40,837 bases of DNA from positions 1 to 40,837 of the IMG/VR virus record IMGVR_UViG_3300035198_000095; one strand, 5' to 3'. The notes under the pieces are model-generated. The model had not been told where the DNA came from, ran no database searches, and saw nothing but the letters and a program-made list of their open reading frames with translations. How positions within the stretch are numbered: the stretch's first letter is position 1; each line of letters opens with the position of its first letter. The stretch is from a virus. Positions 7,307 through 40,837 of the stretch are shown one piece after another. A program made the translations under genes and the position numbers.

Positions 7307-8092
7307 CTATTTAAAATAATTAGGATAATGCTTTACCACCGTAAAGATGTTCCAATTCGGGAACTTTACTTTACACTCCTTATAAGTCTGCATAATTGCA
7401 TACTTAACTTTTTCTACATCATTATTGGAGAGTTCCAAAAGTTCCCTGATACCCTTACGCATTTCAGTATAATGGCTCTTGCCTAAATTCTCCCTGCTCC
7501 AGTGTTTTAATTCAATATACATATCTTGAAGTTCTTTATATTGCGCGAGGGTGATTTTTTTAACTTCTTCTATTTCCGCTTGTTTACGGTAAGGTCGGCA
7601 GGTAAGCGCAAATCTTTGGTCTTTGGAGATAATCTTTAAAATTGTAAGGTTCTTCTGCATCCGCCACCAATCGCAGATACCCCATTCATCAGTAATTTCT
7701 TTAACAGGGATTTCTGGCTTTGGAGTTGTAAAGTCAATATATTTATTAACCAGTTTATGCCAGGAGATGTTCTTACCTTCAGGAACGGTTGCCCACATCT
7801 GCTTTAAGGTGGGGAATTTCTCTCTAAAAGCAATACAGCGCTCTAATTCACGGGAGGAAATTTTTACTTCTTCTGAGATACGTGACAAATCCAATGTCAC
7901 GCGTGTCGCTAATTCCGTCACGCGTGTCGCTAAATCTTTTAGTTCCTCTTTTGCCTTTACCAATCTATCTCCAATTTCCCACTTCATCTCAATTATATCA
8001 GAGCGAACCTTATAAACGCCCTCAGTGAGAATAGACTTTAAATCGTCAACTAACGCTTTATACCAGTCTTGAGTTTGAAGTTCTTGAGCCAT
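7307..8092 (-). CDS. Helical protein, N-terminus like DUF1016
   Basis: 261 residues. The first third (SDIIEMKWEIGDRLVKAKEEL, then ISSRELERCIAFREKFP) resembles the N-terminal domain of YhcG/DUF1016 proteins, which accompany nucleases; the nuclease part is missing. Residues about 53-66 contain the repeat LATRVTELATRVT, encoded by a pair of the 21-bp palindromic repeats also found at 17.9 and 33.5 kb, so this stretch may be a tolerated DNA element rather than a functional segment. No clear ribosome site. Confidence 0.5.
   Translation of the reverse strand: MAQELQTQDWYKALVDDLKSILTEGVYKVRSDIIEMKWEIGDRLVKAKEELKDLATRVTELATRVTLDLSRISEEVKISSRELERCIAFREKFPTLKQMWATVPEGKNISWHKLVNKYIDFTTPKPEIPVKEITDEWGICDWWRMQKNLTILKIISKDQRFALTCRPYRKQAEIEEVKKITLAQYKELQDMYIELKHWSRENLGKSHYTEMRKGIRELLELSNNDVEKVKYAIMQTYKECKVKFPNWNIFTVVKHYPNYFK
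7896..7934. repeat. Paired 21-bp palindromic repeat, locus 1 (in-gene)
   Basis: Two units of AGCGACACGCGTGACGGA(A/T)TT (minus strand), 21 bp apart, inside the gene at 7307-8092. Each unit centres on an imperfect palindrome CGaCACGCGTGaCG. Related pairs lie at 17928-17968 and 33543-33581. Confidence 0.8.
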
Positions 8093-8839: not shown

Positions 8840-9106
8840 TCAAGAACTTTTCTTTCCGCTGCTTTCTAAATAATCCTGAGCCCTTTTATAACTTTCTTTT
8901 GTATAAATTTGCAAAAAAGGTTTCCCTTTGGGATTTCCTTTCACCAAGACATAATTTCCAACTTCTAAAAGAACTTTATCTTCTAAAAATTCCAGCAATT
9001 CTTTTCTGGCTTTTTGACGAATGGACTTAGCATAAGGTTTAGCTTTAGTAAAAGCACAAGAGATTAACTCCAAGAGCTTAGCTTCTTTAACAATTGAATT
9101 GTTCAA
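8840..9106 (-). CDS. Small basic protein, unknown
   Basis: 88 residues from a TTG start with an AAAAGGAAAA site. The first half is a Lys/Ala-rich helix, the second a beta segment (VGNYVLVKGNPKGKPFLQIYTKESY). No family recognised. It is the first gene after the structured RNA at 9225-9525. The leader contains short GTAAA-type tandem repeats (about 9125-9165). Confidence 0.55.
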   Translation of the reverse strand: MNNSIVKEAKLLELISCAFTKAKPYAKSIRQKARKELLEFLEDKVLLEVGNYVLVKGNPKGKPFLQIYTKESYKRAQDYLESSGKKSS

Positions 9107-9224: not shown

Positions 9225-9248
9225 AAAAACTTTAGCTGTATGCTAAAG
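9225..9248 (-). terminator. Rho-independent terminator of the structured RNA
   Basis: Minus strand: CTTTAGC-ATACA-GCTAAAG (7-bp stem, 5-nt loop) followed by five U. A second, longer hairpin follows at about 9187-9222. Confidence 0.8.
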
Positions 9249-9400
9249 AAAGAAACTTGCTTTTATCCGTCGCTTGATTATTTTATGTGGGAAGCCACGC
9301 CACATTACCTAAGACGGTTTATTCCCCGACACATCAGGGAGAGTCGCTTTGAAAACTAAGAAGCTATACAAAGCAAGCAGAGCTCAGGAACGTTTCTTTT

Positions 9401-9508
9401 TTAAAAGAAAAAGGCGAAACTCTCAAACCGAATACTGCCAATCGGTCTGAAGGCTTGCGCCTTCAATTTCGCCTTTAATCTATTACAGTATTCTATTTGA
9501 GAGTTCAT
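9401..9508 (-). CDS. Doubtful 35-residue leader ORF inside the structured RNA
   Basis: An ATG at 9508 follows AAGGAG by 7 nt and opens a 35-codon frame ending at TAA 9401-9403. Its sequence is constrained by the pairing arms of the pseudoknot and has a low-complexity end, so base pairing rather than coding may explain it. If it is translated, ribosomes would melt the pseudoknot, as in an attenuator. Confidence 0.25.
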   Translation of the reverse strand: MNSQIEYCNRLKAKLKAQAFRPIGSIRFESFAFFF

Positions 9509-9531
9509 TTCTATCTCCTTTTTCTAAATAA

Positions 9532-9560
9532 AGTATAAGCACAAAATTCTTATTTGTCAA
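9532..9560 (-). promoter_or_regulatory. Sigma-70-type promoter TTGACA-17-TATACT
   Basis: Perfect -35 (9555-9560), 17-bp spacer and TATACT (9532-9537) on the minus strand; predicted start about 9525. It overlaps the end of the Cys-rich peptide region and drives the structured RNA. Confidence 0.85.
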
Positions 9561-9568
9561 GTCTTTTT

Positions 9569-9736
9569 TTATTGGCAGACCGTGCAATAAGACCTACACC
9601 AATCCCAGCCCCAACCAAGATGTGTACAGTGAGAATAGCATTGCATATCTACGTGACAGTTCCAGAAATAATAAGCATAACAAATTCCTGTAAGTAAGAG
9701 ACAAAACAAGAAACTTATGAGCAGAACTTTCTTCAT
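9569..9736 (-). CDS. Secreted cysteine-rich peptide, 55 residues
   Basis: Start at 9736 (GGAGG, 5 nt), overlapping the stop of the ATP-grasp gene as ATGA. It begins MKK and a hydrophobic segment of about 16 residues ending near CYA, like a signal peptide or membrane anchor. The mature part of about 34 residues has six Cys in the order C-x5-C-x3-C-x9-C-x3-C-x2-C. The CxxxC-x9-CxxxC part matches the spacing of disulfide-linked helical hairpins. Aromatic and His residues are abundant. The target is unknown; tight coupling to the ATP-grasp gene suggests a shared function. Confidence 0.65.
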   Translation of the reverse strand: MKKVLLISFLFCLLLTGICYAYYFWNCHVDMQCYSHCTHLGWGWDWCRSYCTVCQ

Positions 9737-10986
9737 ACTAACCTCCATTTTAAGAGTTGCTGGTAATCCTTCTCCGCTTTTTTCCCGCAATCGGTTCTAA
9801 CTTGTAAATCATTTATCCCGAACTTCTCCACCCGATTTAAGAGATAATAAACTCTTTCTGAGGCGTCAAGAATATTATAACCTGAAGCAGTGATTATTGC
9901 TAATGCGTAATCCGTATCCGCACAGACTAAATTCCCTTCTTTATCAATCATCATATCTAATGGATGAATGTGATTAAAGTTTTTGATATTTTGAATTAAC
10001 CTATGAGGGATTTTCTTATTCTCTGGAACAAGACAGCGAACTGAGGCAGAAAAGGAAGTAGTATTTGTCCTTACTTTTTTAAGTTGTCCACGAGCGCAAT
10101 CAGAGATTATTTTACCAATATCATCTTCAACTAATTCAAGCATTGTATAGATGGCATCGATTCCAAAACGACTTGTGTACTCCAATCCAAAGGGCGTTCC
10201 ATTAAAATATATACAATTAATATCAAGCAAACCCATATAACCAGAGGTTCTTAAGAAAGGAGTTAATTTTTCTAAGGTCTTCTTAAAGATGGGGGTTTCT
10301 CTCTGTAGAGGCAAGACTTTGACTACATCGAGCATACAGCCTGTATTTTGCCCATAATCATCGTTCATAAAGCGCTTACGCTCAAGTGTAAGATTTGCCC
10401 ACCCATCTACCCAGTCCTGACCATTAAAGAGCCCTTCAGAAGAACATTCTATTCCTTCAATATAACTCTGGAGTTCAAATTCTATCTTTTTATGCATCTG
10501 CTTGCTTATTCCTTTTAAGAATTGAAGCATATCCAGCCAATTAGAAGAGACATAAGTTAAAGCGGTGGACATATTGCCTGAGGGCTTAAATACGAACTTT
10601 CCCTGCGTTTTTTCTACATAAGCAATTGCTTCTTTAAAAGATGTGAAGCTTACAGTCTTGGGAATCTTGATACCTGCGGTCTGCATTACAGAAGAACCGT
10701 ATACACGGTCTAATTCCAAAGAATCGGCTAATAGAGAGCCTCCAAAGACCAAATAACCCGCATTTTTAAGCTGGGTGGCTAATCTTCCTGAGCCAACCAT
10801 ATCAAAGCAAATGATTGCGTCTTTAGAGAGTTCTTTTCTCCAGTCATCGGTCTTCTCAATAAGTCCATCTCCGCAATGCTTTTTCTTGGGGTTTTGGATA
10901 TAGAAAAAGACCTCATTGCCTTCTTGATAAACTTTCATTGCCAGCGAAAGTGTATCTGCGTCCTTAGAAATCCATAAAAATTTCAT
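9733..10986 (-). CDS. ATP-grasp enzyme, PurD-like
   Basis: 417 residues. The N-terminal domain resembles the Rossmann-type domain of GARS/PurD (CFDMVGSGRLATQLKNAGYLVFGGS...LELDRVYGSSVMQTAGIKIPKT). The ATP-grasp part shows KFVFKPSG (near residue 130), a conserved acidic stretch (FELQSYIEGIECSSEG) and a late LDINCIYF...GLEYTSRFG metal/ATP site. Such enzymes join a carboxylate to an amine using ATP. Distant PurD homologues are known in phages without a defined role. Coupled to a Cys-rich peptide gene, so peptide modification is conceivable but not shown. No Shine-Dalgarno site is seen. Confidence 0.7.
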   Translation of the reverse strand: MKFLWISKDADTLSLAMKVYQEGNEVFFYIQNPKKKHCGDGLIEKTDDWRKELSKDAIICFDMVGSGRLATQLKNAGYLVFGGSLLADSLELDRVYGSSVMQTAGIKIPKTVSFTSFKEAIAYVEKTQGKFVFKPSGNMSTALTYVSSNWLDMLQFLKGISKQMHKKIEFELQSYIEGIECSSEGLFNGQDWVDGWANLTLERKRFMNDDYGQNTGCMLDVVKVLPLQRETPIFKKTLEKLTPFLRTSGYMGLLDINCIYFNGTPFGLEYTSRFGIDAIYTMLELVEDDIGKIISDCARGQLKKVRTNTTSFSASVRCLVPENKKIPHRLIQNIKNFNHIHPLDMMIDKEGNLVCADTDYALAIITASGYNILDASERVYYLLNRVEKFGINDLQVRTDCGKKAEKDYQQLLKWRLV

Positions 10987-28086: not shown

Positions 28087-28985
28087 ACAAATCTCCACTT
28101 AAATCCCATATCACAATACGCATTTTCTAATTTAGGTTGCCATATAGGTGCTACTTTATTAACTATTTTCTCTCTTATCTTGCTTTCTATTTCTTCAGGA
28201 TATGCGCCAAAGATTTCTTTACATCTTTCTCTGTTTCCTTGATATGGAGCATTAGGATAAAATTTTTTAGGTTGTGACATTGCTCCCAAATGATAAAAAG
28301 GGTCAGTAGGAAAAGTATAAATTATTTTATCTGTAAGAAGCCAAATCTTATAAGATAGTATCTGGTCAAAGGCGTGCCATCTTAAATCGTATCCGCCAAC
28401 TTCCTGCCAAACTGAACGTCTGATACAGCTTCCTTGACCGTGAGCAGTTATTCCTAATGAAGGCATAGTTGTAGTGCGGGCATCTAATTGGATTGGCTCA
28501 CCAGTAAACCAAGTATCAAATGGCTTATTATAAAAAGCCTCCCGAGCTTCTAATTCATCAGAAGGAAGAATTCCCACTTTAGCAAGGTCAGGATGAGCCT
28601 GATAATGAGTTAAGTAAATTGCTCCTGTCATTTCTGCAATATCCTCTCCGAACTCTAACCAACGGATTATATTCTTAAACGGGTCTCCAGCAGATAATTG
28701 GTCATCTTCTAATAAGAATACCCAATCTGTCTCGCAATTTTCCAAAGCCTTTTGCGCTGTCCCCGTAGAATTGCCCCATTTTTCCAAATGAATATGTTTC
28801 CAATCAGGATACTTCTCCATAATTTCGCATAAATCAAAATGATTTTTAGTGTTCGGACAGAAATCCTCTACAACGATTTTCTCCTTTATTTGGCTCAAAT
28901 CTGCGGTAGAAAAACTCTTTAAGAGATAATCTACACGCTTTGCTCCATTAAAAGTCATCACACAAATCCCATAACTGTATCTCAT
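28083..28985 (-). CDS. Family-2-like glycosyltransferase (GT-A fold)
   Basis: 300 residues. The N-terminus (YSYGICVMTFNGAKRVDYLLKSF) and the WVFLLEDDQL acidic motif (DxD-like, near residue 95) are GT-A hallmarks. A later HAFDQILSYKIWLL segment could carry the catalytic acid. It would transfer a sugar from a nucleotide donor. Coupled by ATGA to both neighbours. Confidence 0.65.
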   Translation of the reverse strand: MRYSYGICVMTFNGAKRVDYLLKSFSTADLSQIKEKIVVEDFCPNTKNHFDLCEIMEKYPDWKHIHLEKWGNSTGTAQKALENCETDWVFLLEDDQLSAGDPFKNIIRWLEFGEDIAEMTGAIYLTHYQAHPDLAKVGILPSDELEAREAFYNKPFDTWFTGEPIQLDARTTTMPSLGITAHGQGSCIRRSVWQEVGGYDLRWHAFDQILSYKIWLLTDKIIYTFPTDPFYHLGAMSQPKKFYPNAPYQGNRERCKEIFGAYPEEIESKIREKIVNKVAPIWQPKLENAYCDMGFKWRFV

Positions 28986-30277
28986 CGGAATAATAATTTA
29001 TACTGTTTGTTCTTATACCACTTATAGAATTTTAAACCAAATTTTCCTTCTGGCAAGTTCATTATTTGCCAGATAAATTTCCTCAAAAACGGATAGTTCA
29101 CAATCAAAGCAAAATAGCGCTGTAGATTTCTTAATTGCTTTTTTGCTGTAAAATTCAAGACCGTATTCTCAAAGAAGTTTTCTTTAAAATCATCTCTCCC
29201 ATCCCAGAACTCATTTTTATATGCATAATTAGAAAGTGGCAATCTGGGATATGGCTGAAAGATTGATGCCCAGGCAATTAGAGGCTTAATCTTAATATTT
29301 AAATCTAAAGTCTCTAACATCTGGCTTAAACTCTCTCCAGGCAATCCTAACATATTCTCTGTTCTTATCTTTAATTTATACTTCTTTAAGAGCTCCACAC
29401 CTTTAAGAATCTGCTCATCTGTCATTGGTCGGTTCAATAGATTTTTCCTTAAGTAATAATTTCCGCACTCAACTGCGAAGGTTACGCCTGAGCAACCTGC
29501 TTCTTTTAAAGCAGAAGCTTTCTCTTCAGTTAACAACTCAATTCTAATCTGACAATGAAAGGGAATTTTTACTTTTTCTTTGTAGAGAGAAAGAAGTTCA
29601 AAAAAATTAGGATTAGTTAAAAACTCATCATCTTGGAAGAAAATAAATCTGGTAGGATATTTCTTTAATCCTAAACACTCTTCAATTACATTTTCTGGTG
29701 AGCGGTATCGCACCCAATTCTGGCTTTGGTAAAATGAGCGGTAGAGAGAATTATAGCAGTAGTGACAGTTGAAGTGACAGCCCCGAGAAGTAATGACATT
29801 TTTAATAGGATTGTTTCTATTCTCTGGATACTTGTAAAGAAATTCCCTGTCAGGAAAAGGAATTCTGTCAATATTCTCCTCCAAAGTCCTAAAATTAACT
29901 ATCCTTTTGAATTTACGCCTCAGTTGCCAGTCATCCAAGAACTCCACAAAAGACTTCTCCGCTTCTCCACGCACAATCACATCTACTCCCCTCTCATTTA
30001 CAAACTCAGGAAAATAAGTTGGGTGTGCTCCACCAAAAACAGAAAGAACTGGTAAAACACTCTTTATATTACGAGCAATCTCTAAATAATGTCTGTGCTT
30101 ACCCGTAGTTACAGAAAAAGCGATGATGTGCGGATAAAACTTCTTAATGTCCTCAAAGTTTAGAACATCCGTCTTAATTAAATCAACATCGTGACCCTTT
30201 TTTTTAAGGACTGAAGCAAGATACGCTATCCCAAGTGACTCGACTTGGAACGGGTCAGTAATAAAAAGAATGCGCAT
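28982..30277 (-). CDS. Radical SAM protein with B12-binding-like domain
   Basis: 431 residues. Residues 1-140 have the cobalamin-binding Rossmann-like pattern (LGIAYLASVLKKKGHDVDLI, then IIAFSVTT, VFGGAHPTYFPE, VIVRGEAEKSF), though the DxHxxG motif is missing. Then SRGCHFNCHYCYN gives the Cx3Cx2C cluster motif, followed by a radical SAM barrel (FIFFQDDEFLTN, IRIELLTEEKASALKEAGCSGVTFAVECGN, LGLPGES). It makes a 5'-deoxyadenosyl radical; substrates in this family include methyl transfer to unactivated carbon and C-C rearrangements. Its cassette of two glycosyltransferases and a methyltransferase points to a modified glycan or lipid. Confidence 0.75.
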   Translation of the reverse strand: MRILFITDPFQVESLGIAYLASVLKKKGHDVDLIKTDVLNFEDIKKFYPHIIAFSVTTGKHRHYLEIARNIKSVLPVLSVFGGAHPTYFPEFVNERGVDVIVRGEAEKSFVEFLDDWQLRRKFKRIVNFRTLEENIDRIPFPDREFLYKYPENRNNPIKNVITSRGCHFNCHYCYNSLYRSFYQSQNWVRYRSPENVIEECLGLKKYPTRFIFFQDDEFLTNPNFFELLSLYKEKVKIPFHCQIRIELLTEEKASALKEAGCSGVTFAVECGNYYLRKNLLNRPMTDEQILKGVELLKKYKLKIRTENMLGLPGESLSQMLETLDLNIKIKPLIAWASIFQPYPRLPLSNYAYKNEFWDGRDDFKENFFENTVLNFTAKKQLRNLQRYFALIVNYPFLRKFIWQIMNLPEGKFGLKFYKWYKNKQYKLLFR

Positions 30278-39878: not shown

Positions 39879-39908
39879 AGTATAAGCATAAAAAAGCGGA
39901 TTTGTCAA
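39879..39908 (-). promoter_or_regulatory. Promoter TTGACA-18-TATACT for the terminase operon
   Basis: Perfect -35 (39903-39908) and TATACT (39879-39884), start near 39872, about 75 bases before the small terminase gene. Probably drives the late structural genes; no terminator is seen before 30.6 kb. Confidence 0.8.
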
Positions 39909-40334: not shown

Positions 40335-40363
40335 AGAATAGCACTATTCTAAGGAAGTGTCAA
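40335..40363 (-). promoter_or_regulatory. Promoter TTGACA-17-TATTCT
   Basis: -35 at 40358-40363, -10 at 40335-40340; start near 40328, giving a leader of about 14 nt with the ribosome site for the nuclease at 39916-40314. Confidence 0.75.
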
Positions 40364-40690: not shown

Positions 40691-40750
40691 CATCCAAGCG
40701 CATCCAAGCGCATCCAAGCGCATCCAAGCGCATCCAAGCGCATCCAAGCG
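40691..40750. repeat. Six perfect tandem copies of CATCCAAGCG
   Basis: A 10-bp unit is repeated six times without mismatch; bases 1-40 repeat the last four copies because of the circular overlap. The unit is 60% GC in an AT-rich genome. On the minus strand the array lies just after a terminator and before the promoter at 40584-40613, upstream of the terminase genes. The reading frames through it give only repetitive peptides. A role as packaging or replication site is possible but not shown. Confidence 0.9.
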
Positions 40751-40837
40751 CAAAAAAAAGCCCGCTTTCGGAGCACGCTCCTACTTGCGGGCTTAAACAA
40801 TCTAAGGCAAGGTTGCGTTTGCGAGCCAATGGGCTCG
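40711..40837. repeat. Second copy of the terminal repeat
   Basis: Identical to 1-127. It is the same locus read twice. In the circle, the gene ending at 137 is followed by the terminator and then by the decamer array at 40691-40750. Confidence 0.9.

What the first reader, a model, noticed from the sequence alone, without database searches (positions are those of the whole stretch)
9225..9525. Promoter-to-terminator RNA with a pseudoknot and a 15-bp closing helix
The pairing is too extensive for chance: an 18-position helix with one mismatch, an adjacent 7-bp pseudoknot pairing, a GCAA tetraloop hairpin, and a 3' domain closed by 7+8 bp with three inner hairpins. It has a perfect TTGACA-17-TATACT promoter and a U-run terminator. 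I cannot match it to tmRNA, RNase P, 6S, GOLLD/ROOL or group I RNAs from memory, so it may be an undescribed phage RNA (regulator, packaging RNA or decoy).
Basis: partly seen in the sequence, partly recalled or inferred. Interest (0 to 1): 0.8.

Follow-up and report, generated by a model that had tools for sequence, protein, structure and literature searches.

The report
Structured leader RNA in unknown phage
In the genome of an uncultured phage, a strong promoter is followed by a short messenger that folds back on itself and hides the start signal of a tiny 35-amino-acid gene; it is probably a control element at the head of the downstream genes, but it has no known relatives, so its function is unproven.

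Summary
On the minus strand, a promoter (9560-9532) belonging to this phage's own promoter family is followed at once by a 125-nt domain (9525-9401). That domain is the most over-stable stretch in the window (z -7.2; best of 408 windows). It holds a 19-position helix, a GCAA hairpin and a possible pseudoknot strand. The 3' "domain" (9400-9249) folds little better than chance, and the inner part of the claimed 15-bp closing helix is not predicted. The terminator is weak.

The promoter is also the only family promoter found ahead of the downstream genes 9106-676.

The best reading is a cis-acting leader or small mRNA whose ribosome site is masked, with a competing pseudoknot. The design resembles timP/hok-type toxin mRNAs or, less likely, HK022 put. 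A stand-alone regulatory RNA remains possible.

No Rfam family matches, and no relative was found in phages, plasmids, IMG/VR patterns or 35 full records of related phages. Covariation, the decisive test, could not be done. Interest is moderate.

The parts
9532..9560 (-). Promoter TTGACA-N17-TATACT with phage-specific extended motif (CTTGACAAAT ... TGCTTATACTTTA)
   Evidence: leave-one-out score 26.0 against 14.6 for the next untrained site and 17.4 for the best of 40 shuffles
9401..9525 (-). 5' structured domain of the transcript (nt 1-125 from an inferred start near 9525)
   Evidence: z = -7.2, 0 of 200 shuffles as stable; rank 1 of 408 windows
9515..9520 (-). Shine-Dalgarno AAGGAG, 6 nt before the ATG
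   Evidence: layout matches the promoter-SD-ATG at 40363
9401..9508 (-). 35-codon ORF MNSQIEYCNRLKAKLKAQAFRPIGSIRFESFAFFF, coincident with the strong domain
   Evidence: no Pfam hit, no significant tblastn hit in phages
9486..9504 (-). Helix S1, 5' arm (ACUCUCAAAUAGAAUACUG)
   Evidence: pairs with 9437-9419
9419..9437 (-). Helix S1, 3' arm (CAGUAUUCGGUUUGAGAGU)
9447..9466 (-). Hairpin with GCAA tetraloop in the S1 loop
   Evidence: chance of a 7-bp hairpin in the shuffled loop 0.007
9517..9525 (-). Helix H0, 5' arm (AGAAAAAGG), overlaps the SD
   Evidence: conditional chance 0.035
9406..9414 (-). Helix H0, 3' arm (CCUUUUUCU)
9467..9476 (-). Pseudoknot strand S2a (AAAGGCGAAA)
   Evidence: duplex -12.2 kcal/mol; conditional chance 0.006
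9410..9419 (-). Pseudoknot strand S2b (UUUCGCCUUU); overlaps H0 3' arm, so S2 and H0 exclude each other
   Evidence: sequence
9249..9400 (-). 3' stretch with predicted hairpins closed by 8 bp (9399-9392 with 9256-9249); weakly supported
   Evidence: z -1.2 to -2.2; inner closing helix not predicted
9230..9248 (-). Weak intrinsic-terminator-like hairpin, U-run 9229-9225
   Evidence: Carafa-type score -0.7
8840..9106 (-). First gene downstream (88 aa, TTG start), head of the gene run to 676
   Evidence: one weak PHROG match only, no Pfam match, no phage relatives

Best explanation
This is the 5' end of a phage transcript, not a free-standing ncRNA. A strong host-type promoter of the phage's own family (9560) starts an RNA that at once carries a ribosome-binding site and a 35-codon ORF. 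The ORF RNA folds on itself: S1 (19 positions) begins next to the start codon, and H0 pairs the Shine-Dalgarno region with a U-run near the ORF's end. H0 competes with a pseudoknot (S2) that would free the SD. The fold therefore holds the ORF silent or slow to translate, and opening it (by a ribosome loading before the 3' arm is made, a ligand, a protein or an RNA) would allow a burst of the peptide and/or change read-through past the weak hairpins at 9248-9190 into the downstream genes (9106 to 676). Shown by computation: promoter family, SD/ATG/ORF, S1, and SD pairing in the nested fold. Inferred: transcription start, translation, the H0/S2 switch and the effect on downstream genes.
For: The promoter belongs to a family of four in this genome, leave-one-out 26.0 against 14.6. 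It is the only family promoter found ahead of the downstream genes; the others are at 39908, 40363 and 40613. The promoter at 40363 has the same promoter-SD-ATG layout in front of a gene. SD-ATG pairs occur once on the whole plus strand, and many of those on the minus strand lie at gene starts. The strong fold (z -7.2) coincides with the ORF while the ORF-free 3' half is near chance. SD bases are mostly paired with probability near 1, and S2 (-12.2) and H0 (-11.1) use overlapping strands. Given S1, the S2, H0 and hairpin matches have chance 0.006, 0.035 and 0.007. The weak terminator would let RNA polymerase continue.
Against: No relatives, so neither the peptide nor the pairing has evolutionary support. 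The peptide is basic, without a clear membrane segment, and resembles nothing known. S1 begins just after the ATG, so even the pseudoknot form would resist initiation. A 19-position inverted repeat can arise by inverted duplication without selection on RNA, and similar repeats occur about 5 per Mb in related phages. No promoter for an antisense regulator is seen within the element.
Confidence: 0.45

Rival explanations
1. A stand-alone trans-acting regulatory or decoy RNA of about 300 nt from the 9560 promoter to the 9248-9230 terminator; the ORF is incidental.
For: Strong promoter immediately upstream, most over-stable fold in the window, about 290 nt without an ORF of note between 9400 and 9106, S1 so stable that translation should be very poor.
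Against: Weak terminator, 3' half near chance, well-placed SD+ATG whose ORF ends with the fold, no Rfam match, no relatives.
Confidence: 0.28
2. A put-like antitermination leader: the nascent fold binds host RNA polymerase in cis so that it reads through downstream terminators into the downstream genes.
For: Position: structured RNA directly after a family promoter, followed by terminator-like hairpins and then the gene run to 676. HK022 putL has this position and acts without a protein (PMC9378689).
Against: put is about 70 nt with two stem-loops and a triplex; here one long hairpin of about 120 nt, with an SD and ORF. The terminator it would overcome is weak.
Confidence: 0.1
3. The inverted repeat is not selected as RNA: it is the remnant of an inverted duplication, or a DNA site (protein-binding or recombination), inside a small gene.
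For: Long inverted repeats of equal quality occur about 5 per Mb in related phages for unrelated reasons. A 26-nt piece (9519-9494) also occurs in the capsid gene at 31149-31124 with 2 differences (0 of 1000 shuffles as good), so sequence shuffling within this genome is possible.
Against: Three further helices around S1, one crossing it, are unlikely by chance given S1. The promoter lies just upstream and the SD is in the fold.
Confidence: 0.15

Closest known systems
timP mRNA (timPR type I toxin-antitoxin; first annotated as the noncoding RNA RyfA), PMC11228461
   Same: Small structured mRNA mistaken for an ncRNA; RBS masked in one fold; a pseudoknot excludes that fold and is needed for translation.
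   Different: Here the pseudoknot partners lie inside the ORF, the peptide has no obvious membrane segment, no antisense RNA promoter is seen within the element, and there is no known sequence relation. Phage, not enterobacterial chromosome.
hok-type toxin mRNAs (fold-back inhibition)
   Same: Long-range pairing between the start region and a downstream segment makes the full-length RNA translation-poor (from general knowledge and the introduction of PMC11228461).
   Different: No hydrophobic toxin, no antisense RNA found, processing unknown.
HK022 put RNAs (antitermination in cis), PMC9378689
   Same: Structured RNA just after a phage early promoter and before terminators.
   Different: About 70 nt, two stem-loops with a triplex, and (from general knowledge) no SD or ORF. 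The architecture here is different.
GOLLD/ROOL and other large phage-associated ncRNAs
   Same: Phage-encoded structured RNA of unknown role.
   Different: Far larger (general knowledge); Rfam models for known families give no match here.

Membership tests
Any Rfam 15 family | Covariance-model score at or above the gathering cut-off | tested here: not met
   only a group I intron elsewhere (30851-30674); best within the element 22.3 bits against a cut-off of 70.
Type I toxin mRNA with masked RBS (timP/hok-like) | Small ORF with SD, SD paired in the full-length fold | tested here: met
   SD and 35-codon ORF; SD mostly paired, probability near 1, in the nested fold. This feature is not specific to toxin mRNAs.
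Type I toxin mRNA with masked RBS (timP/hok-like) | Small hydrophobic membrane toxin | tested here: not met
   Translation MNSQIEYCNRLKAKLKAQAFRPIGSIRFESFAFFF has no membrane-length hydrophobic run (by inspection).
Type I toxin mRNA with masked RBS (timP/hok-like) | Antisense antitoxin RNA | tested here: inconclusive
   No plus-strand promoter-like site in 9225-9525, but a consensus scan cannot exclude one, and a trans-encoded antitoxin was not sought.
HK022 put antitermination RNA | About 70 nt folded as two stem-loops | tested here: not met
   One long hairpin of about 120 nt predicted.
HK022 put antitermination RNA | Acts on RNA polymerase to read through terminators | not testable with these tools
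   Needs a transcription assay.
Stand-alone intrinsic-terminated sRNA | Strong intrinsic terminator at the 3' end | tested here: inconclusive
   Hairpin plus U5 present but weak: score -0.7 against 38.7 for the genome's strong terminator.
Conserved structured RNA (any) | Compensatory changes in relatives | not testable with these tools
   No relative found in the collections searched.

The most novel reading that the evidence does not exclude
An undescribed class of phage leader RNA in which a small ORF and a pseudoknotted self-complementary fold are the same sequence, so that ribosome passage and RNA folding form a switch at the entry of an operon.
Probability: 0.15. Interest if true: 0.65.

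Novelty: new variant of a known kind. Interest (0 to 1): 0.36.

Why it matters
If the reading is right, it adds a phage transcript whose first ORF is locked in its own fold, a compact control element outside the known Rfam families and a parallel in phages to the masked mRNAs of toxin systems. It also warns that structure-based 'ncRNA' calls should be checked for SD-led small ORFs. As a singleton in an uncultured phage its reach is limited until relatives appear.

Tried and rejected
Known RNA family: Rfam at gathering and at E<=10 gave nothing. tRNA/tmRNA: none. Group I intron: models hit only 30851-30674, 33382-33201 and 31657-31510 in the capsid gene, not this element. Nucleotide relatives in phages and plasmids: only chance-level hits.

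Relatives through neighbouring proteins: the ATP-grasp gene (9733-10986), the 261-aa gene (7307-8092) and terminase as single queries found none. ATP-grasp alignments found 80 loci of distant phages, none with the RNA by blastn or by a single-sequence covariance model on 35 records.

DNA patterns for S2a plus GCAA hairpin and for S1b/S2b found only unrelated sequence; the motif shared with the capsid gene is absent from viral contigs.

The capsid-shared motif as a meaningful target was considered. It beats 1000 shuffles, but about a tenth of windows in this genome have equal or better matches elsewhere in it, so it is left unexplained.

Leader-peptide attenuation (Phe-rich end ESFAFFF) was considered. 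The terminator is about 150 nt after the stop and no clear alternative pairing with its stem was seen by eye, so it was not pursued.

A whole-window fold control with 300-nt windows timed out and was replaced by 130-nt windows.

Full report
What is there. The window is an IMG/VR virus record of 40,837 bases with a 127-base direct terminal repeat, so it is probably a complete, circularly permuted or terminally redundant genome. Practically all genes run on the minus strand: terminase (39372-38077), portal, capsid, tail and a long 1433-aa protein lead to an ATP-grasp gene (10986-9733). A short Cys-rich ORF follows, then a gap of about 460 bases, then a run of small genes including a DUF5659 protein, a nuclease-like protein and a DNA-ligase-like protein. 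The finding lies in that gap, on the minus strand.

Promoter. TTGACA-17-TATACT at 9560-9532 is not just a consensus match. Three other minus-strand sites (40613, 40363, 39908) share its extended form. A matrix trained without 9560 scores it 26.0; the next untrained site in the window scores 14.6 on the minus and 14.9 on the plus strand, and the best of 40 shuffles 17.4. 39908 precedes the terminase genes and 40363 a small gene with the layout promoter-SD-ATG. 9560 has the same layout, and no other family promoter was found upstream of the gene run from 9106 to 676. That it is the promoter of this gene run is inference.

Fold. The 125 bases 9525-9401 fold at -46.1 kcal/mol against a shuffle mean of -23.5 (z -7.2), the most extreme of 408 windows on this strand (mean -0.4, sd 1.4). 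The main helix S1 is the best inverted repeat in the window. Holding S1 and shuffling the rest, the pseudoknot strand, the closing helix H0 and the tetraloop hairpin each arise rarely (0.006, 0.035, 0.007). The remaining 152 bases to the terminator give z -1.2 to -2.2. The terminator scores -0.7 against 38.7 for the genome's strong terminator at 40792.

The missed ORF. AAGGAG, six bases, then ATG at 9508 opens 35 codons that stop at 9401, where the strong fold stops. SD-ATG pairs occur once on the whole plus strand; on the minus strand many mark gene starts and others lie inside genes. In the nested fold the SD is mostly paired in H0 (probability near 1) and S1 begins just after the ATG. S2 (-12.2 kcal/mol as a duplex) and H0 (-11.1) need overlapping strands, so forming the pseudoknot would free the SD. 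This is the design described for timP mRNA, which was itself first filed as a noncoding RNA (PMC11228461). A resemblance in design is all that is claimed: the peptide is not a membrane toxin by inspection, and no antisense promoter was seen within the element.

Relatives. None was found: blastn in phages and plasmids, degenerate DNA patterns in IMG/VR and GTDB genomes, blastn on ATP-grasp loci, and a single-sequence covariance model on 35 records. These phages are distant (28-39% identity in the seven ATP-grasp proteins aligned), so absence there says little. The decisive test, covariation, is therefore open.

Weighing. A leader or small mRNA with a masked ribosome site explains promoter, SD, ORF, fold boundaries and weak terminator together (0.45). 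A stand-alone RNA explains the fold and the ORF-free 3' stretch but not the SD/ORF coincidence (0.28). A put-like cis antiterminator fits the position but not the architecture (0.10; PMC9378689). An inverted duplication or DNA site is the sober alternative (0.15), since repeats of this quality occur about 5 per Mb in related phages.

Verdict. A real, unusual fold in a plausible regulatory position, outside Rfam, without relatives and with an overlooked small ORF; moderately interesting, mechanism unproven.

Noticed in passing
33457-30600 (-): The major capsid gene (Phage_capsid_4 / Mu-like gpT when the exon pieces are read in order) appears to be split by about four group I introns: Rfam-type matches at 33382-33201, 31657-31510 and 30851-30674, and two LAGLIDADG-like ORFs (32881-32276, 32085-31273). 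The 3' ends of two inserts are 83% alike (about 32357-32264 and 30710-30617).
   Followed up: partly
9519-9494 and 31149-31124 (-): A 26-base stretch with 2 differences is shared by the start of the structured RNA and the capsid coding sequence (GGAGATAGAAATGARCTCTYAAATA); no shuffle of 1000 matched as well, function unknown.
   Followed up: partly
1-127 and 40711-40837: 127-base direct terminal repeat including a strong terminator and CATCCAAGCG tandem repeats (4.2 and 6.2 copies): the record is probably a complete genome.
   Followed up: partly
17968-17927, 7934-7898, about 33591-33550 (-): Scattered palindromic GTCACGCGTGTCGG-like repeats in three places, one of them inside a coding sequence (ATRVT repeats in the 261-aa DUF1016-like protein).
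   Followed up: no
9168-9114: AT-rich tandem GTAAA-type repeats just before the first gene of the downstream run; could be iterons or an operator.
   Followed up: no
28982-30277 (-): A B12-binding radical SAM protein encoded among the structural genes.
   Followed up: no
39873-39800 (-): The leader of the terminase operon also pairs its SD-like GGGAGAGU with an upstream ACUCU segment (z -1.9), a possible second SD-masking leader in the same phage.
   Followed up: partly
9733-10986 (-): ATP-grasp protein near the end of the structural gene run, with over 500 relatives in IMG/VR and often followed by a ~580-aa protein; function in these phages unknown.
   Followed up: partly
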